Of a stretch of DNA of 32,019 bases, positions 2,971 to 32,019 are shown piece by piece. The notes beneath the pieces are model-generated. The model made no database searches and was not told the origin of the DNA. It saw nothing but the letters and a program-made list of their open reading frames with translations. This DNA is from a virus. The translations under genes were made by a program, and so were the position numbers. The first letter of the stretch is position 1. Every line of letters begins with the position of its first letter. The DNA lies in IMG/VR virus record IMGVR_UViG_3300020470_000113, positions 1-32,019 of that record; one strand, written 5' to 3'.

Positions 2971-2971
2971 A

Positions 2972-4476: not shown

Positions 4477-4484
4477 TTATTTAG
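4477..4484 (-). promoter_or_regulatory. CTAAATAA late-promoter-like motif overlapping a stop codon
   Basis: On the minus strand the end of the 530-residue gene reads ACC TAA ATAATCC, so the TAA stop is embedded in CTAAATAA, close to the T4-type late promoter TATAAATA. The next ATG is 20 bases downstream of the motif. The same arrangement occurs at 6078-6085. Chance is possible because TAA supplies half of the motif. Confidence 0.4.
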
Positions 4485-6073: not shown

Positions 6074-6077
6074 GGAG

Positions 6078-6085
6078 TTATTTAG
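6078..6085 (-). promoter_or_regulatory. CTAAATAA late-promoter-like motif at the end of the giant gene
   Basis: The minus strand reads GACATC TAA ATAACTCC ATG: the stop of the giant gene lies inside CTAAATAA and the next ATG begins four bases after the motif. If transcription started in the T4 manner, it would begin at about the start codon, giving a leaderless message, so coupled translation from the upstream gene is at least as likely. Confidence 0.35.
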
Positions 6086-9000
6086 ATGTCATCAAAGATT
6101 TGTGTTGGTAAGAAGTTGCTTAGGACTGTAGCACCAGTCTGGACGCTCAATACAGCAGATAGTGAGTAAACTGGAGTTGCACCAGATGCAGTGATCGCAA
6201 CACGATATTCGTCACTGTCGTCTGCCTGTGTAGTATTTGGAGTATTGTATGTTGACTGGTTAGCACCAATGATGTTGCTCCATGTCTGTGTGCCATACTC
6301 CTTCTTCTGCCACTGATAATTCATTGTCTGATCGTTAGTTACGGTAGAGACAACTGTGAATGAAGCAGAGTAACCTTGGTTAACTGTTACGTTAACTGGG
6401 TCTTGTGATATGAAGATTGTGCCAGGATCGATATCTCCAGCACCACCTGTGTATTCAGATCCTTCGCCAGCGAGTACGTCAAATCCACCGTTAATAGGAG
6501 CACCTTCAGGAGTTGTGAAACTATCAGGAACTTCATTATCGATAGCAACTGTTGGTAATGCGTATCCGATACCAGGAGTCTTAACATCAATTCTAGTAAC
6601 ACCCATCAATGCCTTGATACGAGCGTCAAATCCAGAAGAGGAGATAACGTCAACGTTAGGACGTGAAGTATAACCATCACCAGAGTTGGTTAGGTTAGCA
6701 TTTGTAATCTGTCCAGATGTGATATCAGCGATAGCAGCAGCGTTACGACCCTTAACAGATCCAGTGTACTCGAATGTGATTAGTGAGTTTGAAGACTCAA
6801 TTAGAGCAACCTCACGAGCAAATTCTTCACCGTCTATTTCAAGTTTGTCACCAGCTTCGATTGGTGGGACAACGGTTGCTGCGATAACGTCTGCGTCAGA
6901 TCCAATGTATGAGAAACCAACGAATGTTGATCCCGCACGTGGGACTTCAGCGAAGATTAATCGTGAACCAACGATCTCGTATGCGAGTCCAGGTTCCTGT
7001 ATAACACCGTTAAGTGATACGATAATGTTATTCTCAGGACGGATAACGTTAGATGAAACACCTTCAGTTAGAGTCAAGGAGTAGAATAATCCAGATCTCT
7101 TAAGGTTGAAGGAAGATCTCAATGAATCAAACTCATAACTGATATCGTCTAACTGACGTAATTTACCAACGTAGTAACCAACGAATTGTGATCCGATTAC
7201 AGGTGGCTCAGCAAACTGAATCTTGTCTGAGAATGCAACGTAAGAGTTGTTACCGCCAGGAGGCTGTAGGATACCATTAACGAATGCTAGTAAGTGACCA
7301 GCTGGATCTGGGAAGTATGCTTCACCATTAGAGATGGTTAAATCAAACTGTGTTTGCTGACCATCAAATCCTCTGAAGTATCTGTCAACACGACCTTCGA
7401 GTGTGCGAGCAGATGAAACTGCACCACCCCATCCGTAGTCGGAAATGACTGACATATTATCAACGAATGCCCCAGAAGCATCTTCTACCCAAATTTCAGC
7501 AGTGATACCAACTTGCTCGATTGATACGACCTTAGCGTATGATGAGTAAGTTGTTGTAGTTACGTTAGTAACGTTAGCATATATGCTTGGGAAGTTAGAT
7601 CCAAGATCAATCTTACCAATGTTGTTTGTGCCTTGAGTTACAGCATCGATTGTCTCACCTGTGCCTACTGGAACTACGTTACCAACCCAAAGTTTGTGTA
7701 TACCGTAGTTAGGATCAGTATTCTCAAGCTCTAATCCATTAATGTATTTTGTTACAGTTGCTTTGAATCCTGGATTCTTCTCAGTTGTACCTTGTAGGAG
7801 TGATACTTCATCACCAACACGGAAGGTATCATTAGTGCCGATATCAACGATTGCGACTCCAAGATCTAACTCATATACCGCAGTACCATGTATGTACTGG
7901 TTAAGTTGAATCTGTGTACCAGTTATACCCTTAACTGAAAGGATGTATGCAGTAACACTACCGTAGATAACGTCACCAGGATCCCACTGAGCATCAATGG
8001 TTTCAACATCAATCGTGATACGACCACCAGTATTACCTGTAAGTGATCCAGACTTATTGACATAGTTGTCAATGTATCCTTCAGTATTTGATTCTTTAGA
8101 GAAGAACCAATCACCTGAAGCAAATGCACCTCTAGAGACATTAAGTAAGAATCTATCAGTTGGGGCACCAGCAGTACCTGTTGCACCAGATGTCTGACCT
8201 TCTAATACATCATTCTGAGCTATAGTACCAGCGATAGTTTGTAGTTTAACTAATGATGTGCCATCAGTAGACTTCTTAGTCTGCATTACAAAACCAGTAT
8301 TTGATCCAGCACCTTGGACTTGGACAGTCTCACCATTCAAGAAGACTTCATACTCACCACCCTGTGTGGTTGACATACCAGTGATAGGATAATGTGTAAA
8401 GATCTTACGGATAGTTGCTTCATTATCCTGAATTCTTCCTATCTCAGACTCAGCACCTGAAACACTACCGTAGATAACGTCAGCAGGATTGAATCCACCT
8501 TGGATTGGAGTATCAGAAGGATCGATAGCATATACTGGAGCGTTACGAGTAATACCACTTCTCTGTACAACTGCCATGATTTGTGATCCAGAATTACTTG
8601 TATCAACTTGTAATACTCTGAATCTTCCATCGTGGATGTAAGAAGCACCAATTTCAAACCACTCAGCAGTAGCAGTCAAACAATAGAAATAAGGTTGACC
8701 TGTCAATCCACTTAGGGATGTATCAGATGCAGGGATGTAACTTAATACATCACCACGTCTGAAGTTGTTAGCACGATTAATTCTAATTCTATATTCAGCA
8801 CGGTCAAATCCAACTTCAACTTCAGGAGTTAGTGTAACCAATGCAGGGTCAGTATTGTAATCCCAACCTACCTCATACTTGGTAACTCTGTTAACAGCAT
8901 CAGTAGATGCAACGAATGTAACTCTTGCTTCTGTTGGGAAGGATGATCTTTCTAGAGCAAACTCAATTGGGTTAAGTGAAGAGTCAATTATAAACTCAAC

Positions 9001-12000
9001 TGCTTCCTGATTCCACTCAAGTCTTCCAGCTGGTTGCCATACGTCATAGTTGTCCCAAACACTATCAGTACCAACAAGATACATGATACTCTTAATGTAT
9101 TCTCTACATCTGGTTAGAGCAAATAGGATCTGAGATCTAACAACATCTTGGAATGCAATGAAATTACCTTCACCATCAAACCAGTCTTGTGTCATTCTGA
9201 ATGATCCAGCATTACCACCTGTAATCAAGTCATAACGGACTGCCTTAAGGACATCATTACAGAAGTCAATAGTTAAGTTAGTAGATGGGTAACTTGCTAG
9301 TGTATCTGAGAATGCTCTTCCAGCAATTGCTTGCTGATTGAAGAGAATCATGTTAGCGATAATCTTATTATTATATGTGCCAGCACCTAGAGTGGTTGAC
9401 ATACTATCGAATAATGTATCGATAGCAGACTGGACGTTATAACATGTACCTGACTGGTATACGGTATTGGTATATGCAGATGGGAATGTCTTAGTTACAC
9501 TGTTAACAAGATAGTTTTGATTGTTATTTGCTGCTTGAGATATAGTGTTGATGTATATGTCAGCAAGTGTATTAATTGCAGAAGCAGTTTCATTACATGT
9601 GCCAACCCAGTTACCATTAGCATCTTGACCACCACCAGATACATCGTATGTAATTGTTAGATCTCTAGCAACTACATCTGGAGTGTACTTGACGGGCCAT
9701 ACAGTTGGTAGTGTGTAACTTCTGTTTGCAATATTACTTGGGTTAGTAAATGCATCAGTTGCAAAGTTAACAAGAGTAGTAAGTTCGTTTTCTACATTTA
9801 GAGATTCATTTCCAGTGTATGCAGGATCAACTAGACGTGATCTATAGTAATCTAGATCAGATCTTGTAGGCCATGCCCATGACTTAACATGCTGTACTGG
9901 TAGTTTCTGACCATCAGCATAGTCTGTAACACGTGGATATGTGTGGTTAGTCTGGTTGCTATCCTGTGAGCATGTAAAGGTTAATGAATTGCTATCAATG
10001 ATAACAGCATCATCAGTACCAAGAGTATGATTTGCAACAGTTAGAGTTAACTGACCACTTGTAGGCTCATAGTATGCGTCTGTAGGTGTTAATTGTGTAC
10101 CATCATTGGCAACAGTAATACAGTTGGATAGAGCAGATACGAAAGTATGTCTATAATTACCACCCTGTATTAACGCACCAGCATTAGCACTTACAAATGT
10201 ATGCTGATATGTATTTCCAGCTGGTGACTTACCAACGTTAATAGTAATAGTGCCGTCTTGTTTCTTAAGACCCTTCTTCTTAGCAGATACGAATGTATGA
10301 GTACCAAGGAATGTAGAAGGAATCATATTGAATCCTAATACACCAACATCGAATGTTGAGGTAGATACATTATGTACTGGTAACCACTGGTTACTTGCAT
10401 GATCAGTAGGTCTTGGATATGTGTGAGGAGTTTCATCCTTATCCAGATCACATGTAAATGCCAATGAGAAGTCATCAAACATTACATAATCATTTGCCTT
10501 AACAACTCCATTAGTATCAGCAGATACGAATGTGTGACGATAACTACCACCACCTATTACAGCACCAGCAAGAGCACTTACGAATGTATGATCGTATAGA
10601 TCAGCAGTAGCAGCAACATCTACATCAACAGTAATCTTACCAGACTGTCTATGTAAACCGTTATGCTTCGCATCAGCAAATGTATGTGTGTAGTTACCAC
10701 CAACGGTAACACCGTTTGTAGCAGCAGAGTGGAATGTATGAGTATACTCACCACCAACAGTAACAATAGATCTCTGGACGTTAGATGCGTTAGCAGAAAC
10801 AAATGTATGGACTGTTGTATTTGTAGAAGGAATGTCTGTTAATACTTGGACATCGAATAGATCACAATTAACATTAGAGATCTTCAACCATCTTCCACTT
10901 GAAGGATCAGTAGATCTTGGATATGAATGATTAGTAACGTTGTTATCCTTACCACATGTGAAGGTTAATGAATTGTCTGCAATCTTAACATACTCACCGT
11001 TAATGAATCCATTGCCCACTAGGATACCGTTTGCAGTAGCAGACTGGAATACATGAGCAGTAGTATCTGTGATAGCACCTTGACCACCGTTAACGTTAAC
11101 AGTAATTGTTGTGCCAGATACAGCAGTGATGTCTAACTCTTGATTATATGCATAATCAGCACCAGATGTTGTGGCAGCACCAGCAGCACGTGGATATGTC
11201 TTAGTAGTTACGTTTCCATCTCCACCATAATCACAAGTGAATGTTAGTGAGTTAGGTAACAATCTGATAGTATCATCAGTAGTCAGAGTATGTGCTCCGA
11301 TTGTTAATTCTAAAGTACCAGATGTTGGGTTGTATGCAGCACCCGTAGCAGTCTTCTTATCTTTAGGTACAGAGAGTGTCATGAATCCAGTAGCAGGATT
11401 GTATGATGCAGTCTCTGTGGAGTATGTGTTATTAGCGTTTTGGAATACGTGAGTTGTAGTGTTAGAAGATGTACCAACATCAACTGTAATACCATCAGCA
11501 GTAACAGCAGTAATCTCAACTCTATTATTATATGCAGGGTCATTGCCTGTAGCACCACCCCATCCTGTAGGACGTGGATACCAGTGATCAGAATTTTGTG
11601 AATCTTGATCACAACGGAAGACCATTGATTTGTTTGCAATCTTAACGTAGTTACCAACCTTAAGTTGATGGGTACCGATGGTCATTGTTAGAAGACCAGT
11701 ATTAGGTACGTAAGATGCAGCACTTACTCCATAACCTTTAGCATGTGATTCTCCAACATCAAGTTTGATTGTTGAATTCTCCATCATGATGCCACCATCA
11801 GCAGCACTTACAAATGTGTGTGCATAAGATCCACCACCCTTAACTACACCTCTAATAATTGCACCTGTTGCAGCAGATTGGAAGTTATGAGTTGTTGTGT
11901 TAGATGATGTACCAACGTTAACTGAGAAGGAATTAGCATCAACATAAGTAACACTTAACCATGCATTATTAGATGCAGGATCTTGCTTTCTAGGATATGC

Positions 12001-24000: not shown

Positions 24001-27000
24001 AGAAGATGAAGGATACTGAGTCTTCATGTCATCGAATGCCATTCCGATGATTAATGCTCTATTCTTCTGAATTAACCTGTATGCGTCCTTAAAGCGACTC
24101 CATGGGTTAGTAATAACGTCAGATGGGAAATAGTAGTCTTCAAACTGTATTGCAATACTTGCTTCAGCAAAATCAATGATTTCTTGCTTATTATTGGAAA
24201 TATTGCGTTTTCCATCTAAGAATCTGTTTGCAGCGATTCCATGATAAGCAGAAACTGGATTTCCGTAAATAACCTTCTTATTTCGGATAATTTCGCCTTC
24301 TGCAAGAGTACCACCAGTAAGTTGAGAATATGTAATCTCAGTAGTCCTTACTTCTTCAAAATCAAGGAAATCAGCATTAATTCTGTTTGCAGAATCGTAA
24401 AGCTTAGTAGGAGTAATAGATGATTGTGAAATGTCGTCTAAGATGACATTAGGGTTAGTTAGACTAACTAAACGCTCAAATAGTAATCCGAAGAAGGTAG
24501 ATCCTCTGTTAATGATCAATTCATCAACAGGGTCACCAGTTACAGGATCTGTGTAAGGTGCGATGTATGTAATCTGGCCTGCAATCTTAGATGAGGCAGA
24601 ATAAATGTATTCGTTGAGTTTAAGGTCAAAGATACCAGTTTCAAACCTAGGAGTACCTGAAGTCTTACTTACAACGACTCTATCAGTAACAACACCTTGA
24701 GGGTCGATATTAGTCTCTTCAATGTAAGCAGTGTCACCATCGAGGTTAGTAATTGCTTCTCCAAACTCAAAGATAGTATCTGAGTTGATTAGAGTAACAG
24801 ATTCTACTAATGCAGCGAATATCTCACCTCTTACAATTTGCTCGTTAAGATCAAATGTACCACCAGTTACATTGATAACATCTAAGTGGTTAGTACCTGA
24901 ATCAATAACGGTAGCAACAGTATCAGTAGTCTCACCCTGTATTTGCATACCTAGGGTTGGGAAGATACCATAGTTTGCAGTACCACCAGATTGGTAAAGT
25001 GCAATTCTGTAGATAGGTGTAGGAGTAACTCCTAAGATTCTATAGTTAACTTTAGAAGGTGGTTTAGGTGGCTCAGCAAATACTAAATTACCACCAACGA
25101 TTGTGAATGATTCACCAGGAGACTGGATAACACCGTTAAGAGTTATCATCAACTGATCTTGTTTAACAATTACCTGCTCACCCTCAACAGTAATTGGGAA
25201 TTGCTTATCAATACCGTTAAACTGATCTGAGATATCATCAAGTTTCTTAACGATAGAAGTTAAGATTTCCTCAGAAGAAGTTAGACGTTTCTTACGGAAA
25301 AGAACCTCAGTATTGTTGTAATCAGTATAGATTGGTTGAGCAGCACCGAATGATGTAATCTGGTTTACATTACTATAGTTTTGTATGTTAACCTTCTTAG
25401 TAAACTCAGTACCAATTCTACGTCCAGATACGTCCTTACCACCAGTAAGTTGTAACTGACCAAACATATTGAAACCAGCAGGGTGGTTATTTTCTAAGAC
25501 CTGAGTCTTCCACTCTGTGATAGGAATTTGTGATTGTACAACATATGAGAAGTTTTGATAGAAGAAACTATCTTGAATCTTCTGGACAATCTCAGATGGT
25601 TTACCAACGTCATCAATAAATCGGCCTGGTGTCTTCGTTAGGGAGCCGATATTTAACACACCACGTGCTATCGAGAAGTTATCGATAATACCAGATGCCT
25701 TAGATATTTCACCTTGGACTCTCTCACCTTTTGCCCAATCACCAGTATAATCTACAACCTTAAGAATCTTAGGACCAATCTGCCAACCAGTGTTAGTAGA
25801 AACCTTACCAATAGCAGTCTGTGTCTCTATTGAAGATCCTTGATATACTGTCTCTCCTTCTAAGAAACGAGATGTTTCAACAACAGCAGTTGCTTTACCA
25901 CCGAATACCTCAGTTAGAAGTGTCTGTCTACCAGATCCTTGAGTCAAGAATGTAACGAAAGATCCAGCTTGTGCTGCCTGTAAAGTAAGACCAAATCTTA
26001 ATTGGTCAGGCTCCATACCTGCTGCCTCACCAGCAATAGCATAATAGGTCTGTCCTTCAACCAAGCTAGTTAAACCTGCGGTACTTGGTTTTGGTAATTC
26101 ACCAGTTGTTGATCCAATATCATCAGCACGGAATTGGACTTCAGCACCAGTGGTAATACCATGTGGGAAGTTAAACTGTAGATAGTTAAGGTCTAAGTTA
26201 ACAACATAGTTGAATTCTGATTTCAGAGTAACAGTTGGTTCGGATGAGTAACCTGAACCTGGATTCTTAATTGTAATCTCAGACAATCTGTTATTCTTAA
26301 CGATTGCTATCGCTTCAGCACCTGATCCACCACCACCTTCGATTACAACAGCAGGAGTAGAAGTATATCCAGAACCTGGGTCAGTTATCTTAATCTGACT
26401 TAGTATTGATGTATTAAAGAGTTGTAAGTTAACAGGGAATGTAATCTCTGGTTTTAAGGTATAGTCATGTGAATAACCGAAACCAAATTCATTATTCTTC
26501 AGTCTCTTAATCTTACCAATATTAGTACCTGTTAAGAAGACAGATGCACCAGATCCTTCAGAAGGAATAACGACATTAACACTACCACCAGATCCAGCAA
26601 GAGTCTGTCCTAGGATACCAGGTATAGCGTCTATATCGATAGATGCAGTTGTATAACCTTTACCTGGGTCAGTTACAGCAACACCTGTAATAGTACCTGA
26701 TCCAATCTCATCATCAACTTCTACAGTAACGGTTGCCTTAGCACCTTCACCATCTCCCAATATAGGGACATCATAGTAGACACCTGGAGCATACTCAGTA
26801 CCTCCATCAACAACTACAACCTTCTCAATCTGTCTGAAGGATGCAATGTCACTAATGATAGGTAATTTCTGATAGAATCCACCTGGAGAAACCAGTTGAA
26901 TTGTATTAATAGGACCAACTGCTCTTAGAGAGGTAGTTGAATAATATGAGTATGGTTGATCAAATTCGTCATTTCCAACCTCAGCATTCATCCTTTCTGG

Positions 27001-30000: not shown

Positions 30001-32019
30001 TACACCAAAGATACAATCGTCGTTATCATCATTAACACCAACAAAGAAGAATCTGTCATCAGATATCCACTTGATCTGGTTAATCATCTCTGAATCATCA
30101 GCAGATGCAATCTTTCTCTTCTCTACAAGATCACCATCAAGATTACACTGAATGATCCACATATCGTTAGGATCAGGTGAATTACTATCTGTATAACCTG
30201 CAAGATAGATACGACCTTCCTGGTCTAATGCTAGAGATGTAACCCAGTCTCTTCTTGTGGTACCACTGATACCAGCAATAGCCTTCTGCCATAGAAGGAT
30301 ACCATCTGGAGCATTAGCATTGTTGAATCCAGACTCATACTTACCTAACCAAATATCAGGATTATACTGAGAGTTATTAGGATCATATGTTTGACCAACG
30401 ATATAAATGATGTCATTCTCTGCTGAAGCATCGATATGCATCTTAACGAATTCTGCCTTCTTAGTACCTGAGTTAAGAGGTAATAAGTTTCTCTCCCAGA
30501 CTTTTTGGCCTAGGTCGTCAAATTTGACGATAATTGCTGCTTGGTCACCATCTGTTTCAAGACAACTACCACAGATATATGTGTAACGCTCTTCAGTCGT
30601 TACCATATCATGTATACTGACTATACCAGTTGCTTCAAGGTATTCAGTGATCCAATAGCGAGTTTTCTTATATTGCTGAGGATGAGATACTCTAATCTGA
30701 GGAGGATTGTCAGCATCATATCCATTACCAGAATTAATGATATTAACCTTATTAATCTGTCCAGTATTCTCAAGCACCAACTGGAGAGAAGCATCTTGAC
30801 CAGATGCTGTAATTAACTCAAAAGTAGGTGGAATATCTTCGTTATATCCTGTACCTGCTTGAGTTACTGAAATACTCTCAACACCAGTCACAACCTTGAC
30901 TTTGAAGGTTTTCTGAGTGTTATCAATGACAGGACGTGAGTTTACAATGATTTCATCTTGTTGTCTCAACTCATGCCCTATAGATGTTGTTATAACACCA
31001 TATGGACGGTCACCAATGATCTCTTTCTGATATCCAATAATATTCTGTCCCTTAACAGATTCGATGATAGCAGAAGCACCAAAACCACCAGTACCTTCAT
31101 TATCGAAGAATATGGTGTCATCTACCTGATATGACTCACCTGGGTTCTCAATAACAAATCCATCAATCTGAGCATTCTCAAATTGAGTAGTTGTCTCAAC
31201 TTCGATATCAACTCTAGACTCAGCAGAGACTCTTGGGAAATAGTCATATATTTGTAGAGTTGCCTCTTCAGACATCTCTAGTAATTCTTGTTGCTCATTA
31301 GCATCAATCAAACCGTCATTATTACTATCCTGTATTTCAAAGATAATAGGATATCCTTCTATCTCAGTAGTGAAGATATCAGCAGTCTGGTTAGGTTGAC
31401 GATCAATATCAATATCAACATCAGTATATGGATCTCTATAACGGACAACACCATCAGGGATATTCTCTTGTGTTGCTGCTTGAGAGAAGTTCCAAGCATC
31501 GGGAAGTGAGTTAAACTGTGGTCCTAAGATATATGGGAATTCAGAAAGACCTGCATCACTAGCATCTATAGTTACGAAATAAGCATAGGTGCCTCCAGGA
31601 TACTCAGGAGTCTTACAGAAACGACCATTATACTGATCTAAGTCACCTGATTGGAAATCATAGAAATAGTCATCTACAAATGTGCCAGCAGCATATGTGG
31701 CAATAGGAGGACCATCTACACGAGCAGGTTCAGGATTGGTTATCTCATCATATACAACGTTTTCTTTCAGTTTATATGAAGTACGCATCCTTCTGATACC
31801 ACTATTCTGGTCAGTAGGATCGATATATCCATAAGGACCATATATTGGGTTACCATCAAATGCCCAACCTATAACAGGTGAATGTTGGAAATTAGATGCT
31901 AATTCTTGGAATTCCTGTGTAACAGGATTTAAGAATACATTATCACCAACAACATATCTTAATTCTTTAGGATCTGAGAGGTGAGCATATTCACCACCAA
32001 ATTGGTTGTTATATCCAGT
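6082..32019 (-). CDS. Giant modular virion adhesin/structural protein, at least 8,645 codons, N-terminus outside window
   Basis: One open frame covers about 81% of the window and is still open at the right edge: the 77 codons upstream of the ATG at 31788 continue the same YHYH domain (GWAFDGNPIYGPYGY), so that ATG is internal. At about 108 Da per residue the visible part would be near 0.9 MDa. From N to C: YHYH domain; EF-hand loop; GSGY cluster; beta-propeller-like region; LamG-like; two W/Y/G binding-module-like repeats; GSGY cluster; tail-fibre modules; helical C-x2-D/GGN modules 1-2; LamG 2; helical modules 3-6; LamG 3; about 31 FTC...YPR units; helical module 7; ribbon and NGVIQ modules; Ig-like C-terminus. 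There is no catalytic motif, protease site or membrane segment that I can see. The 25.9-kb frame has no internal stop, so it is under coding constraint. Position before gp8 suggests the baseplate or tail fibre; gp7 occupies the comparable place in T4, but I see no gp7 similarity. Host adhesion is inferred from the modules. Confidence 0.88.
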   Translation of the reverse strand, partial: TGYNNQFGGEYAHLSDPKELRYVVGDNVFLNPVTQEFQELASNFQHSPVIGWAFDGNPIYGPYGYIDPTDQNSGIRRMRTSYKLKENVVYDEITNPEPARVDGPPIATYAAGTFVDDYFYDFQSGDLDQYNGRFCKTPEYPGGTYAYFVTIDASDAGLSEFPYILGPQFNSLPDAWNFSQAATQENIPDGVVRYRDPYTDVDIDIDRQPNQTADIFTTEIEGYPIIFEIQDSNNDGLIDANEQQELLEMSEEATLQIYDYFPRVSAESRVDIEVETTTQFENAQIDGFVIENPGESYQVDDTIFFDNEGTGGFGASAIIESVKGQNIIGYQKEIIGDRPYGVITTSIGHELRQQDEIIVNSRPVIDNTQKTFKVKVVTGVESISVTQAGTGYNEDIPPTFELITASGQDASLQLVLENTGQINKVNIINSGNGYDADNPPQIRVSHPQQYKKTRYWITEYLEATGIVSIHDMVTTEERYTYICGSCLETDGDQAAIIVKFDDLGQKVWERNLLPLNSGTKKAEFVKMHIDASAENDIIYIVGQTYDPNNSQYNPDIWLGKYESGFNNANAPDGILLWQKAIAGISGTTRRDWVTSLALDQEGRIYLAGYTDSNSPDPNDMWIIQCNLDGDLVEKRKIASADDSEMINQIKWISDDRFFFVGVNDDNDDCIFGVFWFDGANLEIEYIRQIPTLGGYVRNPKFAVDDYGDCVLVWDVYNSVSSKYDKVQISKFPIATANSQWEWQKTVTISGDIDSIRHAGINVDVFGNYSLVTDVVEEQNQRYSVIHYMKYDGTIIKETKIDDTANIGFKAKTHTVDNSGDPILVLDRQQSDQIAAYRFNDDTDLDYDFTKQNLATMTFTSIPDSTYDDVVYKFGTGSLKLSGPSPVILASYGMTDKEWSFRTWMSMNTTAHATNHKPILFDVIPVAGDSIQVELDGDQNSANYEKAVIYVNSVQAATSATAVNWTAFASAQWVHVTFQKREESLGLYQYELFINGNLVVNFQSTSDISVNEVAVAGKHTGGNAANCFVGNIDDLVVDNIAPYNTAYSTPGEEIPVTTSNSDSVLVKFDRLHSKRGTFTLSGVTKYTDIAFTDIELSTTWVDLGLSALSAWVPGAGGLQILDMSQVIATLNPSTYTFTTNKAEYATKTSTIPSPLGKRLEISADVISKFYMRDALYQKIDNVMEFTFSQDLKLTKGTILQQFNDAGVTQAYGTIVNVPEGTLLNPGYGNKYQVGKIYGEFNNTDRYRTVAGDVNQIEGTYFDTIEEENPWQANTAYVQGDTVYNGKRIYQAQGAGTSGTIAPVHTAGVQSDGVINWAFLDDAGKFTIDLTQHPYPRPQWTGLDMPEWLPDRLYVVGQRVWYKLNVYEVAVGGGGVSGTTAPTHDTGDASDGGVTWTHISTEEAISVYTRLMPYDNGNNYMVQIMEVQPGSVYIPGDVVSINSSNITLAEDEKSTEISGFASVKKIRVTARLEKDIIRSSSVRTEYVYATSNSAHNFDAGNIIFTEGFTTAQFNGSFFIDQIMGSREFTFAIRATADSDPAFTNNAIAGVNIYAKHPTLEFTRNHQYVFDLSDTSNFGYYLSFSQDNQYKLEYSFNNIERSGTPGIPTTPAPFVKFSVLGDVTNISYYFDPSRTGANSPVGSNSFIDVITTPFDGTFKISEVPTDTTFKFPLLKEPERMNAEVGNDEFDQPYSYYSTTSLRAVGPINTIQLVSPGGFYQKLPIISDIASFRQIEKVVVVDGGTEYAPGVYYDVPILGDGEGAKATVTVEVDDEIGSGTITGVAVTDPGKGYTTASIDIDAIPGILGQTLAGSGGSVNVVIPSEGSGASVFLTGTNIGKIKRLKNNEFGFGYSHDYTLKPEITFPVNLQLFNTSILSQIKITDPGSGYTSTPAVVIEGGGGSGAEAIAIVKNNRLSEITIKNPGSGYSSEPTVTLKSEFNYVVNLDLNYLQFNFPHGITTGAEVQFRADDIGSTTGELPKPSTAGLTSLVEGQTYYAIAGEAAGMEPDQLRFGLTLQAAQAGSFVTFLTQGSGRQTLLTEVFGGKATAVVETSRFLEGETVYQGSSIETQTAIGKVSTNTGWQIGPKILKVVDYTGDWAKGERVQGEISKASGIIDNFSIARGVLNIGSLTKTPGRFIDDVGKPSEIVQKIQDSFFYQNFSYVVQSQIPITEWKTQVLENNHPAGFNMFGQLQLTGGKDVSGRRIGTEFTKKVNIQNYSNVNQITSFGAAQPIYTDYNNTEVLFRKKRLTSSEEILTSIVKKLDDISDQFNGIDKQFPITVEGEQVIVKQDQLMITLNGVIQSPGESFTIVGGNLVFAEPPKPPSKVNYRILGVTPTPIYRIALYQSGGTANYGIFPTLGMQIQGETTDTVATVIDSGTNHLDVINVTGGTFDLNEQIVRGEIFAALVESVTLINSDTIFEFGEAITNLDGDTAYIEETNIDPQGVVTDRVVVSKTSGTPRFETGIFDLKLNEYIYSASSKIAGQITYIAPYTDPVTGDPVDELIINRGSTFFGLLFERLVSLTNPNVILDDISQSSITPTKLYDSANRINADFLDFEEVRTTEITYSQLTGGTLAEGEIIRNKKVIYGNPVSAYHGIAANRFLDGKRNISNNKQEIIDFAEASIAIQFEDYYFPSDVITNPWSRFKDAYRLIQKNRALIIGMAFDDMKTQYPSSSIPSDDKCKRDIGLFIDAITIDMYAGGNRYARKFIQQFFDSNGNLTYVNAQAAETRFAYEKAKDRCLVALANGYSGTINAVNSGDSWVAYQDLTITADPSPNDPYGTAGSNTSNTDSENCSDVQSALSTLWEFIDEALNISSLTELPDEQEGTYSPHQEKCRRDLGYFIDAIAEDVGSGGNYNTVEFTKKFFDDAGVPLTNGIVGEEAEAVWAFNSARTLMYSAINNLMYWKELNTPGYNLNDPTTYSGGVAPANTYDANYASGNNQDVNNCANVKSYIDTLSGIATTAMTAGNLTNVNALALVSDGTFVANETVRTTKLAYKDKSTGLFITNDQIKGITSGAVFSAVGVNSGLKWLFAGPITGTFQNGEYLTNSTLTNTNCSQSVIIKKAELEGEKSIYIPTNGHIVATESKDFEFGLGDFTIEGWIRPASNVGTQVLVDFRRLTAAQGLNILMDGQKLKVYNGTTNTILSTDVFATTGTWYHISVCRTSGVTQAYVNGSQVGSNYVDTNDYLYGGAYIGADFNLANSWAGHIDNFVIKKGVGDRQANFTSPNTLDYTDEKIVFGLNGEAPFVCSTTDTYATFCGQNSSSATAKSIDYAERDIIVEDVDTGRAEQKRCAEIIDLNAAWIAEEAVGRMKVAFPDFTIRGDDPGNNVYGGTNLCIRDTKDYILGALIKDLQEGGDFHTIYTARTYLTASGKLDHIAAEILQSLYTWNEVFKICIDVVTTTSTDLNGEYSTRLRIPNNFASPASSNTTDEINLLGSNLLKVVAPMDQRFREGGYQLWKNRDYIAEEVAGFIQNKYEKDIDGTVYDFLEMPGYGQPYCERDIKDFILPAVIADLATGGTYQTEAVIDKYLDSQQNVIHVESELNPMLDAFEHTKLLCLKAINNLLLSSGEAASELGAIAPSYIQEEYYSPLYTARAAYRDENIVLDTEAYPQGPTGRNSNDRYLDAADVIWNNRRIIAKECVAIMNDLSKYENLQIPGGPVNCEDDVLDMIEAAVHDLRFDCNEKTYDAAALYVETENNSLKHIEGEWEASITVVKILRDIMTLTMRNAFGRDYIEGTDLQTTPVQSYEQNPREVMYQKCGDAIDGNIRYIAEQAVAAGLVQFPNLLIPGGPANCVHDVTDILRSLAFNLKYGGNNWMQYAAEFYTTYNGALDHVAAQSTETIWIMNKAKEYAIRAMKGQVITNAAGHNVDQRFYDAVPRPNNSLFNSIADTGIIVGQPNSLVTRSFIAGEDKISTTDSGTGIVTDEDAVFRCVTKLPSNPIDCCLFEAGDSTSGTWFGIRDNGTYLRLRAGDGTNSYSGGANHNDNGLAMLDLQISNLSTYFDDGDHELVWEIRIGGNLGTGSGRVKLWIDGTPVGEATTPGANYTGLTGGGGIFASSNFAGYAIGGGSLVAGESAAINTFTVNVGPAPKIAYDISHAAYDSSNGDMVINIGSHNHTVGTFLSLATNSINFTCDQDNNASTHSYPRSGDPAGNAAVEVIAVGATAHTVEDASYNPENGSMSITLPNHGMTDSTMHTISDATYDPDTGLLVCQSAAHGFQTGDQIQIKNGSIIFTCAQDNHSTKHGYPRAKDPAGDAWMLVEAVTTNSFTVNVGQTPKIEYNVSDATYNQNDGELELDIGQHRFVGADMHVASHAEYVATKGLLTLTVPGHKITKGEQIQIFDNSMTFTCSMDNYYSEHVYPRSTDPCSGKWLDVVESDIPGGTFTVNVGESPTVGWNPTAATFNSTTGQLELTVGSGHGLAVGTNIKIASQSLAFTCAMDDHASVHAYPRHVDPIHNEPTPIVGVTNDTIVVNVGKTPEQQYDVSGATFTPADGKLVLTTDRKTTLRQSSVHSISTASYDGKKGLMRLRIADHGFSAGDFVKVADGGVSFTCSMDNNATVHAYPRSTDPMSDKWMDIRNVSKDEFDVFVGRTPEIPFLVTAAEFTPVTGHMKITIGDHNLRNGQSIRFAKESLTFTCFLDAHQSLHPYPRSSGSNFSGNGGADPFYNKPCPIIHDGSPLTATTGTSYNPTTGIMSITTDAAHGLSNGDEVKFKEGAVTFTCLEDNNGSNHPYPRATDPYANRWLAVSNVSTYTFDVQVLSYAPSTNTTAHTFVQGTVGGITKKDGTITLDVGQSSDTTDHTFIPHVGFTPESAVYNPTTGILNLTIDGHGFENGDRIKIDNNSLKFTCGFDNHATVHTYPRPSDPFSDNWFEVTNVTTQSFDVQVLVDIPQSNTTLHTFVGCTPNCVHRAAIITGGIYDHTYSTSVANCVRHAGDSVRIKDDGLTFRCAADGNSSNHTYPRSAVTTHTPSHVDYDPNTGHLTFHVANHGFLPYSYVKIADESLSFSCKKDISRHTPTAIDYNPTTGVAELTLGLYHGLTTNDMIQISPESLTFTCDFNGDGYTTQKKYPRATGAATSNGKDYAYNTYLPIDSVSADSVFVNFNGGQGAITDTSTHNFISADSECVTGIIVSAHLYPRATDPVAGKWVQIQDTTANSFNVEVLDVIPSTHVTAHNFLSATNNCITHKKDHFYDSNIPVWEIGETNHTPTDITYNPTEGSMQITVANSFLGPNELTPTMCTFYPTTGILRLTQNGHSVKNGDMMMIRDSVLTFRCDKDSQATDHLYPRPSDPVSGKWLKAFNIGSNTYDLQVGNLYGDSPISNTTTHVCNNIATGAIYHARDFVRFDENAITFTCSKDNNQSNHTYPRRSDPTYRQWLPIRNVSPTGFSVQVGKSAVNDVYDHTFVSVVSNSLHRQNGTVTLDVGNGQITNPTTHTFQSAVSGALVAGGQYAHTFIPGTETYTATDANYLPATGVMTITVPNHGFHDGESIKINNNSLVFTCLQDSNGSDHAYPRSSDPVSGKWITISNCTDDTFDVQVLENIPSTNTTLHTFKSATPNGITRAQVVTGGNYSHKFVAPAQLTPTNVAYNPTTGVMTITSAKHGLQNGGRIKVQDGFVTMTCTQDSNQTNHSYPRKNDPFSDEWMKVSNVTEDTFDVQVLFNIPSSNTSTHTFVSAVPKSITVATMMKGNDSIKIAANSLTFTCSKDGNSTEHTYPRITDPAYNESLRIIDDGVTRHTPSGATYTPSTGVLALTVSKHGFSNGDFIKLDDYALHMNCTMDDNSSDHAYPRGTDPISGKWIQIENVTQDTFELNVGTTAASQFTPTDASYDPYTGHLELNIGPHSLKQGQHVKLADGAVTFTCDMDQNGSQHAYPRTTIDSFTPTGADFNGETGYLTLTITNHGMDNGSLIKIADNALSLNCTMDGNTSTKTYPRSSDPISGKWKPVENATENTIDIFVGKSEFVSFDPQNVEYNASNGNMVITVGPDHGIEVNDSIYINEYSMTFTCAQDGHGSDHTYPRANGVGGATADDPAFRDAVNVTAVDDSTITVNVNSSPSGSSNHAHIFKPAVGKTPTNVTYSGASGVMTITIPDHGMLDGEQVLIEDNALIFTCAKDDHATEHAYPRHGDPASGKWLTISNVTQDTFRVQVLDKVPSTNTSTHTFVTAKVNSILRGTIRKGGSFSHTFVSAVGGGVTHKRDRAYDHSIEIKDVGHAEYTASGATYNAETGVLTLTVLNNPFSNGNRIKLKPNSLTMSCDMDGNATNHSYPREGIDPAYDKWLEVSGVAGNNFNVQIGTTTRANYLVSDATYEPTTGDMTLKIGPHGYKGGSTHTITNADYDPIAGTLLVTIPAHGFTIGDRVKIAQDSLSFTCGMDGNTSTKTYPRTTDPQFNQWMPISDVTYDTFKVNVGTSPQSTHNVTAANYNPTSGNMELTIGSHTLDVGDSIKIKPNSLTFTCDYNGDGNTTQKTYPRSSGASTANGKDYAYDTALPITAKTATTITVNVNGNQGAITDETTHNWAGGTAAGAVISGGGYAHTFVTAAPNGLKVAHESLWIENQSLVFKCLLDNNATEHFYPRANGQGGATADDPYYDTSIPIQSVTADSVVVNVGISSNTSQHTFVRSVNAFTPTGATFTPGSGELVLTVAGHPFVTGDKIQIKDESIVFRCQQDSFGSDHAYPRKQDPASNNAWLSVTYVDANSFSVNVGTSSNTTTHNFQSAATGAIIRGVVKGGGSYAHTFVSAADGGIMMENSTIKLDVGESHAKGYGVSAASYVPNTGLLTMTIGTHQLKVGNYVKIANKSMVFRCDQDSQNSDHWYPRPTGWGGATGNDPAYNNRVEITAVTADGITVDVGTSSNTTTHVFQNANNTYSTETASYNPATGFMTLSVPKDKKTATGAAYNPTSGTLELTIGAHTLTTDDTIRLLPNSLTFTCDYGGDGNVTTKTYPRAAGAATTSGADYAYNQELDITAVSGTTITVNVNGGQGAITDTTAHVFQSATANGILVGNGFINGEYVKIADNSLTFTCGKDNNVTNHSYPRSTDPSSGRWLKISNVNCDLFDVQVLTDIPSTNTTVHTFVSANASNVQRSIVTVGGEYTHTFHSAATNGVTVGGNYTHTFADAKHNGLHRQSGKITVDVDVAATADLYDHTFVSALAGAVIGGGSYRHTFVSADTNGVVKANDYVMFDDFSLAFTCDLDKDETPHTYPRPTDHASNQWLPVHNVSTSTFDVGVLGFNMIPSTFLGTHTFVSAKKKGLKKQDGTITINVGKSPAGNTYQHTFVSANAGALIQGGNYRHTFVSALSNCITVANDGTQLTPTDAYYEPTSGQLTLTVANHTLGTDDAVIIDSNSLTFTCSQDSNQTNHTYPRVTDYADGQKLPVQHVKSWAWPTRSDLDYYRSRLVDPAYTGNESLNVENELTTLVNFATDAFTNPSNIANRSYTLPTVWPVKYTPDVVARDLTITYDVSGGGQDANGNWVGTCNETASAINTLADIYINTISQAANNNQNYLVNSVTKTFPSAYTNTVYQSGTCYNVQSAIDTLFDSMSTTLGAGTYNNKIIANMILFNQQAIAGRAFSDTLASYPSTNLTIDFCNDVLKAVRYDLITGGNAGSFRMTQDWFDGEGNFIAFQDVVRSQILFALTRCREYIKSIMYLVGTDSVWDNYDVWQPAGRLEWNQEAVEFIIDSSLNPIEFALERSSFPTEARVTFVASTDAVNRVTKYEVGWDYNTDPALVTLTPEVEVGFDRAEYRIRINRANNFRRGDVLSYIPASDTSLSGLTGQPYFYCLTATAEWFEIGASYIHDGRFRVLQVDTSNSGSQIMAVVQRSGITRNAPVYAIDPSDTPIQGGFNPADVIYGSVSGAESEIGRIQDNEATIRKIFTHYPITGMSTTQGGEYEVFLNGETVQVQGAGSNTGFVMQTKKSTDGTSLVKLQTIAGTIAQNDVLEGQTSGATGTAGAPTDRFLLNVSRGAFASGDWFFSKESNTEGYIDNYVNKSGSLTGNTGGRITIDVETIDAQWDPGDVIYGSVTAYILSVKGITGTQIQLNQYIHGTAVYELDLGVAIVDIGTNDTFRVGDEVSLLQGTTEKNPGFKATVTKYINGLELENTDPNYGIHKLWVGNVVPVGTGETIDAVTQGTNNIGKIDLGSNFPSIYANVTNVTTTTYSSYAKVVSIEQVGITAEIWVEDASGAFVDNMSVISDYGWGGAVSSARTLEGRVDRYFRGFDGQQTQFDLTISNGEAYFPDPAGHLLAFVNGILQPPGGNNSYVAFSDKIQFAEPPVIGSQFVGYYVGKLRQLDDISYEFDSLRSSFNLKRSGLFYSLTLTEGVSSNVIRPENNIIVSLNGVIQEPGLAYEIVGSRLIFAEVPRAGSTFVGFSYIGSDADVIAATVVPPIEAGDKLEIDGEEFAREVALIESSNSLITFEYTGSVKGRNAAAIADITSGQITNANLTNSGDGYTSRPNVDVISSSGFDARIKALMGVTRIDVKTPGIGYALPTVAIDNEVPDSFTTPEGAPINGGFDVLAGEGSEYTGGAGDIDPGTIFISQDPVNVTVNQGYSASFTVVSTVTNDQTMNYQWQKKEYGTQTWSNIIGANQSTYNTPNTTQADDSDEYRVAITASGATPVYSLSAVLSVQTGATVLSNFLPTQIFDDI
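6130..6435 (-). other. C-terminal Ig-like domain of the giant protein
   Basis: The segment includes IFISQDPVNVTVNQGYSASF, MNYQWQKKEYG and DEYRVAITASG, the usual order of an Ig-like strand, core tryptophan and late tyrosine strand. Only about 15 residues follow before the stop. The same domain type ends the next gene downstream. Confidence 0.65.
6898..7036 (-). other. NGVIQ tail-fibre module, copy 3
   Basis: The sequence NNIIVSLNGVIQEPGLAYEI followed by IFAEVPRAGSTFVGFSYIG is a module seen in many phage tail fibres and resembling the FNGILQ segment of T4 gp10. A second copy lies about 130 bases upstream. Confidence 0.55.
7165..7296 (-). other. NGVIQ tail-fibre module, copy 2
   Basis: HLLAFVNGILQPPGGNNSYV followed by IQFAEPPVIGSQFVGYYVG. 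It matches copies at 25030-25155 and 6898-7036. Confidence 0.55.
7900..8480 (-). repeat. Ribbon motifs of the form G-D-V-x-x-G-x-x-S-G-A
   Basis: Several short units, including ADVIYGSVSGAESEIG, NDVLEGQTSGATGTAG and GDVIYGSVTAYILSV, recur here. The same pattern ends the 635-residue protein (GEVLRGNTSGALANI) and appears around 25,700-25,870 as ETVYQGSS and ERVQGEISKASG. It is typical of phage tail structural proteins. Confidence 0.5.
9069..9375 (-). repeat. Helical C-x2-D/GGN module, copy 7
   Basis: NLTIDFCNDVLKAVRYDL, then ITGGNAGSFRMTQDWF, then a helical segment ending CREYIKSIMYLVG. It matches copies 1 to 6 on the far side of the YPR array. It is preceded by two copies of a smaller C-x2-V/T-x-SAI-x-TL motif at about 9395-9455 and 9525-9605. 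Confidence 0.65.
9890..19760 (-). repeat. Array of about 31 'FTC...HxYPR' units in the giant protein
   Basis: About 3,290 residues made of imperfect units averaging about 106 residues. Each unit has: a strand pair (ATYNPTTGxLxLTIxxHG), a segment of the type GDxIKIxxxSLTFTC, then C-x2-D-x5-H-x-YPR, then a D-P-x3-KWLxIxNV strand and either NVG or VQVL-IPSTNT-HTFVSA. By hand I count 31 YPR motifs and 31 FTC-type cysteines; 26 of the YPR motifs are H-x-YPR and five are K-x-YPR. The aspartate two residues after the cysteine is constant except in the three NGDG/GGDG-type units. I do not recognise a named domain. A repetitive beta-rod or binding array is inferred. Metal binding by Cys, Asp and His is possible but unproven. 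Confidence 0.85.
16588..17220 (-). repeat. Block of truncated and fused YPR units
   Basis: Four neighbouring units are irregular. In transcription order one goes from YPRSAV directly into the strand segment of the next unit; the next has its cysteine (LSFSCKKDI) but loses the YPR part and jumps to SRHTPTAIDYNP; the next is a full NGDG-type unit; and the last begins inside the motif as VSAHLYPRATDP with no FTC cysteine. All joins stay in frame. Confidence 0.6.
19785..20315 (-). other. LamG-like domain 3
   Basis: A concanavalin/LamG-like jelly-roll segment with VFRCVTKLPSNPIDCCLFEA, GTYLRLRAGDGTNSYSGG, HELVWEIRIG, VKLWIDGTPVGE and a closing GYAIGGG. It lies between helical module 6 and the YPR array. 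Carbohydrate binding is a property of some relatives and is only inferred here. Confidence 0.5.
20445..20757 (-). repeat. Helical C-x2-D/GGN module, copy 6
   Basis: KCGDAIDGNIRYIAEQAV, LIPGGPANCVHDVTDILRSL, LKYGGNNWMQYAAEF, and a helical tail ending AKEYAIRAMKGQ. The order N-x3-I-x-EEA, PGGPxNC-x2-D, D/N-L-x-x-GGN and a terminal helix is shared by the copies. Confidence 0.65.
20830..21163 (-). repeat. Helical C-x2-D/GGN module, copy 5
   Basis: ADVIWNNRRIIAKECVAIMN, IPGGPVNCEDDVLDMIEAAV, HDLRFDCNEKTYDAA and a helical tail ending TLTMRNAFG. The GGN is replaced by DCN in this copy. Confidence 0.65.
21318..21685 (-). repeat. Helical C-x2-D/GGN module, copy 4
   Basis: YQLWKNRDYIAEEVAGFIQN, PGYGQPYCERDIKDFILP, IADLATGGTYQTEAVIDKY and a helical tail ending LLCLKAINNLL. 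Confidence 0.7.
21815..22163 (-). repeat. Helical C-x2-D/GGN module, copy 3
   Basis: CAEIIDLNAAWIAEEAVGRM, NLCIRDTKDYILGALIKDL, QEGGDFHTIYTARTYL and a helical tail ending FKICIDVV. It follows LamG domain 2 directly. Confidence 0.7.
22330..22830 (-). other. LamG-like domain 2
   Basis: A clear LamG/concanavalin-like segment: FEFGLGDFTIEGWIRPAS, GLNILMDGQKLKVYNG, TGTWYHISVCRTSGVTQAYV, GAYIGADF and WAGHIDNFVIKKGVG. This order of a GDFTIEGWI strand, W-H-I-x-V-x-R strand, V-NG turn and G-x-IDN-V/F strand is characteristic of the family. Confidence 0.75.
23311..23531 (-). repeat. Helical C-x2-D/GGN module, copy 2
   Basis: EKCRRDLGYFIDAIAEDV, GSGGNYNTVEFTKKFF and a helical tail ending MYSAINNLMYW. 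Small C-x2-V-x-S motifs (NCSDVQSALSTL at about 23,650 and NCANVKSYIDTL at about 23,190) flank this copy. Confidence 0.7.
23785..24106 (-). repeat. Helical C-x2-D/GGN module, copy 1
   Basis: AYRLIQKNRALIIGMAFDDM, CKRDIGLFIDAITIDM, YAGGNRYARKFIQQFF and a helical tail ending RCLVALANG. I recall modules of this kind in other marine T4-like phage structural proteins, without a described function. Confidence 0.7.
25030..25155 (-). other. NGVIQ tail-fibre module, copy 1
   Basis: LMITLNGVIQSPGESFTIVG followed by NLVFAEPPKPPSKVNYRILG. It matches the two copies near the C-terminus of the same protein, some 18 kb away. Confidence 0.55.
26215..26830 (-). repeat. GSGY repeat cluster B in the giant protein
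   Basis: Four or more glycine-rich units with cores GGTEYAPG, DPGKGYTTAS, DPGSGYTSTP and NPGSGYSSEP, the last two each joined to VVIEGGGGSGAEAIA-like strands. It is the same type as in gp8 and the 635-residue protein. Confidence 0.7.
27815..27992 (-). other. Carbohydrate-binding-module-like repeat 2
   Basis: EWLPDRLYVVGQRVWYKLNV, then YEVAVGGGGVSGTTAPTHDTG and GGVTWTHIS. The W-x4-Y-x2-G-x2-V-x4-x2-Y pattern recalls small chitin- or cellulose-type binding modules and is also frequent in phage tail fibres. Ligand binding is not shown. Confidence 0.45.
28063..28221 (-). other. Carbohydrate-binding-module-like repeat 1
   Basis: WQANTAYVQGDTVYNGKRIY, then QAQGAGTSGTIAPVHTAG and GVINWAFL. It is a clear paralogue of repeat 2, about 75 residues upstream in the protein. 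Confidence 0.5.
28900..29530 (-). other. LamG-like domain 1
   Basis: A LamG-like jelly-roll segment: YKFGTGSLKLSG, EWSFRTWMSMN, WVHVTFQKREE, YELFINGNLVVNF and CFVGNIDDLVVDN. The signature elements (KFG-x-GSL, W-V-H-V, ING turn and IDDL-V) are present in order. Confidence 0.7.
29540..30665 (-). other. Beta-propeller-like region
   Basis: About 375 residues with repeated blades of the type YICGSCLETDGDQAAIIVKF, then WERNLLP, IYIVGQTYDPN, IYLAGYTDSN and DMWIIQCNLDGDL. Repeated (I/Y)-(Y/F)-hydrophobic-(A/V)-G strands followed by KF/YD-x-G turns recall SBBP-type beta-propellers. Blade number is not certain. Confidence 0.45.
30690..31170 (-). repeat. GSGY repeat cluster A in the giant protein
   Basis: Three units with cores NPGESYQVDD, QAGTGYNEDIPP and NSGNGYDADNPP, each followed by a beta-strand segment. 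Confidence 0.65.
31294..31329 (-). other. EF-hand-type calcium-binding loop
   Basis: The 12 residues DSNNDGLIDANE fit the canonical loop with D, N, D at positions 1, 3, 5, glycine at 6, isoleucine at 8 and glutamate at 12. Only one loop is visible and no second partner is near, so structural calcium binding is more likely than sensing. Confidence 0.6.
31510..32019 (-). other. YHYH domain of the giant protein, cut at the window edge
   Basis: The visible part holds GWAFDGNPIYGPYGYIDP, RMRTSYKL, GRFCKTPEYPGGTYAYFVT and FPYILG, aligned closely with the YHYH domain of the 530-residue protein. The YHYH motif itself would lie just past position 32019. This continuity proves that the frame extends upstream of the ATG at 31788. 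Confidence 0.8.

What the first reader, a model, noticed from the sequence alone, without database searches (positions are those of the whole stretch)
6082..32019. A phage structural gene of at least 8,645 codons, still open at the window edge
A single frame without stops covers 25.9 kb, and the part upstream of the first in-window ATG is a conserved YHYH domain, so the true protein is longer still. Visible mass is roughly 0.9 MDa by residue count. Such a length is extreme for a phage, and would dominate a virion's late protein budget.
Basis: partly seen in the sequence, partly recalled or inferred. Interest (0 to 1): 0.75.

Follow-up and report, generated by a model that had tools for sequence, protein, structure and literature searches.

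The report
Giant cyanophage baseplate protein gp7
A virus of marine cyanobacteria encodes one real protein of about 10,000 amino acids, an enlarged form of a known part of the viral tail tip that has grown by adding repeated domains of a kind also found in tail fibres.

Summary
The minus-strand frame 32019..6082 has 8,645 sense codons and no stop, and it is a real gene. A second IMG/VR contig matches the window's last 5,519 bases exactly and holds the start, 1,389 codons upstream; together they give 10,034 aa and 1.09 MDa. A third contig matches 19,944 bases, including the whole repeat array, with 5 mismatches and no gap. Of 41 relatives' contigs examined, 28 hold the complete gene, at 6,721-9,922 aa.

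It is the gp7-type baseplate wedge protein of T4-like cyanophages (PHROG 701). Three blocks match short gp7s in order, separated by large insertions and followed by a ~6,450-residue extension. Isolates already show 8,573 aa (P-RSM6). The 6,619-aa relative in phage S-SZBM1 was found in purified virions. Length follows the number of ~100-residue 'YPR' beta units (r 0.96-0.98). These units and helical modules recur in tail-fibre families, so I infer a built-in host-contact arm.

A new, very long member of a known kind.

The parts
6082..32019 (-). Giant gp7-type baseplate wedge gene, C-terminal 8,645 of 10,034 residues; the start lies 1,389 codons beyond the window edge
   Evidence: PHROG 701 in all pieces scanned
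31561..31998 (-). YHYH domain (residues 8-153 of the visible frame), cut at its start by the window edge
   Evidence: Pfam PF14240 E 7e-29; coordinates
25453..25584 (-). Third gp7 core block (HPxGF motif), overlapping the match to T4 gp7 866-897
   Evidence: hhalign E 6.6e-5; short-gp7 HMM E 2.2e-6
22387..22776 (-). LamG/concanavalin-like domain
   Evidence: Pfam PF13385 E 4.8e-15
20410..24102 (-). Region holding six helical modules of ~115 residues (C..D....I.A...D...GGN pattern), interrupted by the LamG domain
   Evidence: read from the sequence; the stretch 20785-21702 with two modules matches PHROGs annotated as short tail fiber and tail fiber
9871..19767 (-). YPR array: 34 HMM hits (some partial) to a ~105-residue beta unit with the motif C..D.....H.YPR..DP
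16627..16989 (-). Unit-sized stretch absent from G003 and G006 (117 extra residues in the alignment with G003)
   Evidence: position
9040..9369 (-). Seventh helical module, after the array
   Evidence: read from the sequence
6184..6411 (-). C-terminal Ig-like domain
   Evidence: head-protein and Hoc-like PHROGs; Pfam Ig_3 and I-set only below cut-off
4481..6073 (-). 530-aa virion protein with a YHYH domain
   Evidence: PHROG 25852 E 9e-223 and Pfam YHYH E 1.3e-34
2972..4456 (-). gp9/gp10-like wedge-to-fibre connector
   Evidence: PHROG 677 E 2e-139; Pfam T4_gp9_10_N E 6.8e-9
1063..2970 (-). 635-aa wedge-related protein
   Evidence: PHROG 22827 E 3e-264 and 708 (baseplate wedge subunit) E 1.7e-187
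3..1028 (-). gp8 baseplate wedge subunit, cut at the left window edge
   Evidence: PHROG 438 E 1.5e-149; Pfam Phage-Gp8 E 8.7e-14

Best explanation
The frame is the gp7-type baseplate wedge protein of a T4-like marine cyanophage (Kyanoviridae-like). Shown: a short gp7 core, split into three blocks at residues 9-61, 671-814 and 3535-3578 of the 10,034-aa protein, is interrupted by insertions of about 610 and 2,720 residues and followed by about 6,450 more. Most of the length differences among the relatives compared go with the copy number of a ~100-residue beta unit (YPR unit) in the C-terminal extension. Inferred: the core sits in each of six wedges, as gp7 does in T4, while the C-terminal extension (LamG, helical modules, beta-barrel beads, terminal Ig-like domain) projects outwards and touches the host surface. 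It may do some of the work of the long tail fibres that the nearest isolates are reported to lack.
For: PHROG 701 in all pieces of the protein. Short gp7s of phiM12, Cr30 and pf16 match three blocks in order, E 2.6e-7, 4.7e-21 and 2.2e-6. T4 gp7 matches two of them in order, E 1.5e-6 and 6.6e-5. Gene order: two baseplate wedge subunits of the size and place of gp25 and gp6, then the giant, on L005; giant, YHYH protein, gp9/10-like, 635 aa, gp8 in the window; the same order with T4 names in P-TIM40. tblastn of residues 600-800 finds 437 phage records, among them phiM12, Cr30 and pf16. The 6,619-aa S-SZBM1 homologue was seen in CsCl-purified particles with 71 peptides. dN/dS 0.11-0.31. Length against YPR-unit number: r 0.98 (n 12) or 0.96 (n 13), slope about 93 aa per unit. 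YPR units and two helical modules match PHROGs annotated as tail fiber (E 1.6e-36) and short tail fiber (E 1.4e-25). S-SZBM1, S-WAM1, P-RSM6 and P-TIM40, the four best-matching isolates, are said to lack long tail fibres (PMC9146016 section 3.4).
Against: The N-terminal block alone did not match T4 gp7 (it does match the shorter gp7s). Pfam's T4 gp7 domain models were not hit; only Baseplate_wedge PF23786, below cut-off (E 0.0048). The YPR fold match is modest (Z 8.1 at best), and Foldseek found no PDB match at E <= 0.001. Syn9 (6,076 aa) also has a giant gp7, and I did not test whether it lacks long fibres, so the fibre link may be only a clade effect. The regression is on related proteins. 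My PDB sequence search and literature listings showed no structure of such a baseplate.
Confidence: 0.75

Rival explanations
1. The extension is a passive scaffold: it enlarges or stiffens the baseplate and does not bind the host.
For: YPR units keep their order between this protein and G003 (26 of 27 units compared) and are under purifying selection, not the fast change expected of a receptor binder. Neighbouring wedge proteins share PHROG matches with the giant.
Against: The array has the weakest constraint (dN/dS 0.22-0.31 against 0.11-0.26 elsewhere) and large copy-number variation. Its units are shared with proteins annotated as tail fibers, and LamG and Ig-like folds are common in surface binders (established knowledge).
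Confidence: 0.3
2. The protein is made whole but cut into pieces during assembly, so the virion holds several smaller proteins.
For: Proteolysis during assembly is common in phages (established knowledge). The S-SZBM1 peptides cover only 13.5% of the protein and their positions are not given in the parts of the paper that I read.
Against: 71 peptides assigned to one 724-kDa entry suit an intact chain but do not prove it. I looked for no cleavage motif.
Confidence: 0.12
3. The frame is an assembly chimera or an expanded repeat.
For: The record is a metagenomic contig; 3 of 73 related loci show a frame break.
Against: Exact or near-exact agreement with two other contigs over 5,519 and 19,944 bases; no DNA tandem repeats reported in the window; each unit compared is 39-65% identical to its nearest fellow in the same protein, too different to collapse; 28 of 41 relatives' contigs hold complete long frames.
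Confidence: 0.02

Closest known systems
Cyanophage giant gp7 / 'baseplate wedge initiator' (PHROG 701; P-RSM6, P-TIM40, S-WAM1, S-SZBM1)
   Same: P-RSM6 and P-TIM40: same gene position and long collinear matches before and after the array, same core blocks. S-WAM1 and S-SZBM1: 66-67% identity over the 500 residues compared
   Different: 10,034 aa against 8,573, 7,351, 6,737 and 6,619; 34 YPR-unit hits against 20 in P-RSM6 and 5 in P-TIM40
T4 gp7 (1,032 aa; six copies, monomer in the wedge, PMC3004832 passages)
   Same: Two core blocks in order (residues 732-758 and 866-897 of T4 gp7) and a similar place in the gene order, after gp6
   Different: No match found to the rest of T4 gp7; the two blocks start 134 residues apart in T4 and about 2,850 apart here; ~6,450 extra C-terminal residues
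Short gp7 of Pseudomonas pf16 (523 aa), Caulobacter Cr30 (767 aa), Sinorhizobium phiM12 (1,007 aa)
   Same: A profile of the three matches all three core blocks in order
   Different: They are 10 to 20 times shorter and lack the insertions and extension
Cyanophage tail fiber protein families (PHROG 5342, 4527)
   Same: Share YPR units and helical modules
   Different: Shared modules only; they are other families, and I did not look at their gene position

Membership tests
Cyanophage gp7-type wedge protein (PHROG 701) | Profile match along the length | tested here: met
   L005 residues 7-1389 match profile 3-1378; window pieces continue at 1379-3304 and 3307-3738, the array matches in repeated stretches, and the last piece reaches 6122 of 6136
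Cyanophage gp7-type wedge protein (PHROG 701) | Lies between gp25-gp6 and the gp8 cluster | tested here: met
   L005: frames of 137 and 699 aa matching baseplate wedge PHROGs 261 and 219, the second ending 4 bases before the start codon (named gp25 and gp6 after P-TIM40); the window holds the gp9/10-like protein and gp8
Cyanophage gp7-type wedge protein (PHROG 701) | Present in virions | not testable with these tools
   Reported for the S-SZBM1 homologue (PMC9146016 Table 1); nothing is known for this virus
gp7 superfamily including T4 gp7 | Core blocks in order | tested here: met
   Three blocks with short gp7s, two of them with T4 gp7
gp7 superfamily including T4 gp7 | N-terminal block matches T4 gp7 directly | tested here: inconclusive
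   No significant hhalign match, though the same block matches the shorter gp7s at E 2.6e-7
T4 gp7 in the narrow sense (Pfam Gp7_helical, Gp7_5th, Gp7_6th) | Matches to the T4-type domain models | tested here: not met
   None reported for the giant's pieces (E up to 0.1, 0.001), while T4 gp7 itself hits all three. I therefore file it under the cyanophage gp7 family and claim only distant homology to T4 gp7
gp7 superfamily including T4 gp7 | Six monomers per baseplate, one per wedge | not testable with these tools
   Needs cryo-EM or quantitative proteomics
E1 FCCH-like / endosialidase-type beta-barrel (YPR unit) | Same fold | tested here: inconclusive
   VIA-align Z 8.1 to UBA6 (77 residues, rmsd 2.5) and Z 7.5 to phi92 endosialidase (84 residues, rmsd 2.5); Pfam E1_FCCH and End_beta_barrel below cut-off; Pfam also gives Cthe_2159 (carbohydrate-binding) below cut-off

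The most novel reading that the evidence does not exclude
In this cyanophage clade the gp7 wedge protein has absorbed the host-binding fibre: a million-dalton arm, built of tandem beta-barrel beads that grow and shrink by whole in-frame units, replaces separate long tail fibres, so that six copies give the baseplate its own receptor-binding skirt with adjustable reach.
Probability: 0.3. Interest if true: 0.65.

Novelty: new member of a known kind. Interest (0 to 1): 0.42.

Why it matters
Giant frames in phage contigs are easily doubted as artefacts; this one is backed by other contigs, purifying selection and a proteomics hit in a relative. It shows how a ~500-1,000-residue baseplate part can be extended to ~10,000 residues by insertions between core blocks and by copy-number change of one domain, in phages of marine cyanobacteria. 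If the extension binds the host, counting array units would give a sequence-based handle on host contact in uncultured cyanophages.

Tried and rejected
Assembly artefact: rejected by contig agreement. Recent tandem expansion: no DNA tandem repeats reported and the units compared are 39-65% identical to the nearest one in the same protein, so the array is old, though one unit was gained here or lost in G003 and G006. A head or packaging role, as PHROG 701 is labelled: rejected on gene order and gp7 core. Phycobilisome homology of the helical modules: Pfam's whole-protein score is above cut-off but no single stretch passes, a pair of modules scanned alone gave no Pfam match, and the AlphaFold model of that pair is poor (mean pLDDT 54), so it was not searched. 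N-terminal 1,389 residues against the PDB by sequence: no match at E up to 1. A profile of the array against the PDB: only two weak matches, E 0.0074 and 0.024, not pursued. Foldseek of the array against the PDB: none at E <= 0.001. Literature on record-length phage proteins: the listings showed no paper on this; I saw listings only and make no claim that it is unpublished. I did not test whether it is the longest phage protein known; it is longer than every other one I looked at (28 complete ones, the isolates, and the 30 records, whose completeness I did not check).

Dropped before counting: 7 of 80 loci were not given (L025, L028, L039, L044, L051, L056, L077); the downstream side was seen only as far as each locus reaches (at most 3,833 codons). 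One search took 41 of those 80 loci and one search took 30 of the 80 loci, chosen mainly for contig length. In one search the script called G036 complete because it used 1,388 codons instead of its own 1,385; its frame ends at the contig end, so I count it as truncated (28 complete, 13 truncated). G011 (7,842 aa, a different C-terminus) was left out of the first regression and included in the second. In one search only units of 70 residues or more were compared (27 of 34 in this protein).

Full report
What is in the sequence. The minus strand of the window from 32019 down to 6082 is one frame of 8,645 sense codons and a stop. Given its base composition, the chance of that is about 10^-257. The visible part weighs 938 kDa, pI 4.7. 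G000 is a virus record of 32,019 bases, the window itself. No tRNA and no DNA tandem repeat were reported in the window.

Where it begins. A search with the first 500 visible residues found 145 related places in viral contigs, of which the best 80 were kept. The best, L005, agrees with the window over all 5,519 shared bases and goes on upstream to an ATG 1,389 codons before the window edge. In 72 of 73 loci examined the frame goes on for 1,385-1,392 codons upstream of the corresponding point before a stop; the exception, L043, has a stop 156 codons upstream. Two others, L060 and L069, have a stop 2,477 and 2,259 codons downstream. Joined in a script, the protein is 10,034 residues and 1.088 MDa.

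Is it real? A third contig, G072, agrees with the window over 19,944 bases (window 5552-25495) with 5 mismatches and no gap, including the whole array, and G073 over about 20.9 kb at 97.1% with 13 gap openings and an open frame of 6,706 codons. L005 and G072 leave 1,005 bases between them, of which G073 covers 709. Of 41 relatives' contigs put through a frame search, 28 hold the complete gene, at 6,721-9,922 aa, and 13 are cut by a contig end (G036 counted as cut). Thirty further contigs of the P-SSM4 type gave open frames of 3,531-8,210 aa (completeness not checked). Nei-Gojobori dN/dS of the visible part against G003, G006 and G007 is 0.17, 0.23 and 0.25 overall, lowest in the first quarter (residues 1-2190, 0.11-0.19) and highest in the array (0.22-0.31). 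So the frame is translated and under constraint.

What it is. All pieces of the protein match PHROG 701, a cyanophage virion-protein family. On L005, two baseplate wedge proteins of the size and place of gp25 and gp6 come first, the second ending 4 bases before the giant's ATG. In the window follow a YHYH protein, a gp9/10-like connector, a 635-aa wedge-related protein and gp8. P-TIM40 has the same order with T4 names in its record. A profile of three short gp7 proteins (phiM12 1,007 aa, Cr30 767 aa, pf16 523 aa) matches the giant in three blocks in the right order: 9-61 (E 2.6e-7), 671-814 (E 4.7e-21) and 3535-3578 (E 2.2e-6) (a fourth stretch, 1703-1827 at E 1.3e-5, and several weaker ones fall in glycine-rich repeats and are not used). 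In the short profile the first two blocks are adjacent; in the giant 609 residues lie between them. The third block is near the end of the short profile (761-804 of 825) but has 6,456 residues after it here. T4 gp7 matches blocks 2 and 3 directly (E 1.5e-6 and 6.6e-5) but not block 1, and Pfam's T4 gp7 models are not hit. I therefore file it under the cyanophage gp7 family and call the link to T4 gp7 distant homology.

How long gp7 can be. From annotation: pf16 523, Cr30 767, phiM12 1,007, T4 1,032, S-H34 1,942, B23 2,845, S-SSM7 3,007 (with a second gp7-annotated gene of 3,001), S-CAM3 3,045, Bellamy 4,067, S-SCSM1 4,120, S-SM2 4,156, Syn9 6,076, S-SZBM1 6,619, S-WAM1 6,737, ACG-2014d 6,817, P-SSM4 7,312, P-TIM40 7,351, P-RSM6 8,573 (computed from the record coordinates where the call gives no length). 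The window's protein tops the range I saw; I did not survey all phages.

Where the length comes from. Between residues 5,474 and 8,772 lies an array of 34 HMM hits, some partial, to a unit of about 105 residues with the motif C..D.....H.YPR..DP. Over 13 related proteins, length rises by about 93 residues per unit (r 0.96; 0.98 without G011), while the residues outside units vary only from 6,283 to 7,107. Six of the 13 come from the nearest relatives with 31-34 units, so this is a description and not a test with independent points. Of 27 units compared, 26 have their best match in G003 in the same order; the exception is unit 11. This protein is 112 residues longer than G003, and a unit-sized stretch around unit 11, 117 residues in the alignment, is inserted in frame inside another unit; unit 11's best match within this protein is unit 27, at 62%.

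What the array looks like. AlphaFold2 on two units with 26 aligned sequences gives two all-beta domains (mean pLDDT 83, pTM 0.51) joined by a loose linker (pLDDT about 39), like beads on a string. The best solved look-alikes among Foldseek's candidates are the FCCH barrel region of the E1 enzyme UBA6 (Z 8.1) and a part of the phi92 endosialidase (Z 7.5). Such Z values may mean only a common arrangement. Pfam names E1_FCCH and End_beta_barrel, both below cut-off, and, also below cut-off, the carbohydrate-binding family Cthe_2159 (E 3.2e-4). Among predicted viral proteins 36 match at E <= 0.001; the named ones are mostly cyanophage proteins, some called baseplate wedge initiator, tail protein, long tail fiber or endosialidase. 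By profile, the units and two helical modules match PHROGs annotated as tail fiber and short tail fiber proteins. The C-terminus is Ig-like (head-protein and Hoc-like PHROGs).

How it probably works. Shown elsewhere: in T4, gp7 is a wedge monomer present in six copies; with gp8, gp10 and gp11 it forms the baseplate pins, and its A domain swivels outwards when the baseplate changes shape at infection (PMC3004832, passages). Shown for a relative: the 6,619-aa S-SZBM1 protein is found in CsCl-purified particles, 71 peptides, 13.5% coverage (PMC9146016, passages and Table 1). The same paper says that S-SZBM1, S-WAM1, P-RSM6 and P-TIM40 lack long tail fibres (section 3.4); these are the four best-matching isolates here. 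Inferred: the core anchors the protein in the wedge and the extension reaches out as a host-contact arm. For contrast, S-CREM2 has a long tail fibre gene of 14.9 kb and a 5.8-kb baseplate wedge gene (PMC10665884, passages); I did not test that wedge gene's homology, and I did not run the comparison across all genomes.

'Dominates the protein budget' is not supported: emPAI 0.41 against 27.64 for the capsid protein, about 10% of the listed protein mass in S-SZBM1. 'Extreme for a phage' is true against T4 but usual in this clade.

Verdict. A real, very long, new member of a known protein family, with a clear anatomy of how it grew. The open question worth testing is whether the grown part is a receptor-binding arm.

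Noticed in passing
window 4481-6073 (-): The next gene (530 aa) carries a second YHYH domain and matches PHROG 25852 over its whole length; its C-terminal part shares PHROG matches (27200, 613) with the giant's Ig-like end, so modules are shared between neighbouring virion genes.
   Followed up: partly
L016 / G011 (L102, L103): A relative has a shorter 7,842-aa gp7 with 22 YPR-unit hits and a different C-terminus resembling that of P-SSM4, with a 1,374-aa frame further on that has matches to the giant's first 500 visible residues; it looks like a recombinant end.
   Followed up: partly
window 20410-24102 and 9040-9369 (-): Seven helical modules with a C..D....I.A...D...GGN pattern; Pfam Phycobilisome scores above cut-off only for the whole 2,000-residue piece, and the AlphaFold model of two modules is poor.
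   Followed up: partly
IMG/VR 3300020411_000301, 3300020411_002770 and the window: Three overlapping contigs of what looks like one virus are held as separate records.
   Followed up: yes
L239 (S-SSM7): Two genes of about 3,000 aa, with one gene between them, are both annotated as gp7 baseplate wedge initiator.
   Followed up: no
L043, L060, L069: Frame breaks upstream of or inside the giant gene in three related contigs; real or assembly error is not known.
   Followed up: no
PHROG 701 annotation: The family is labelled head and packaging although the gene position and the gp7 core point to the baseplate wedge.
   Followed up: partly
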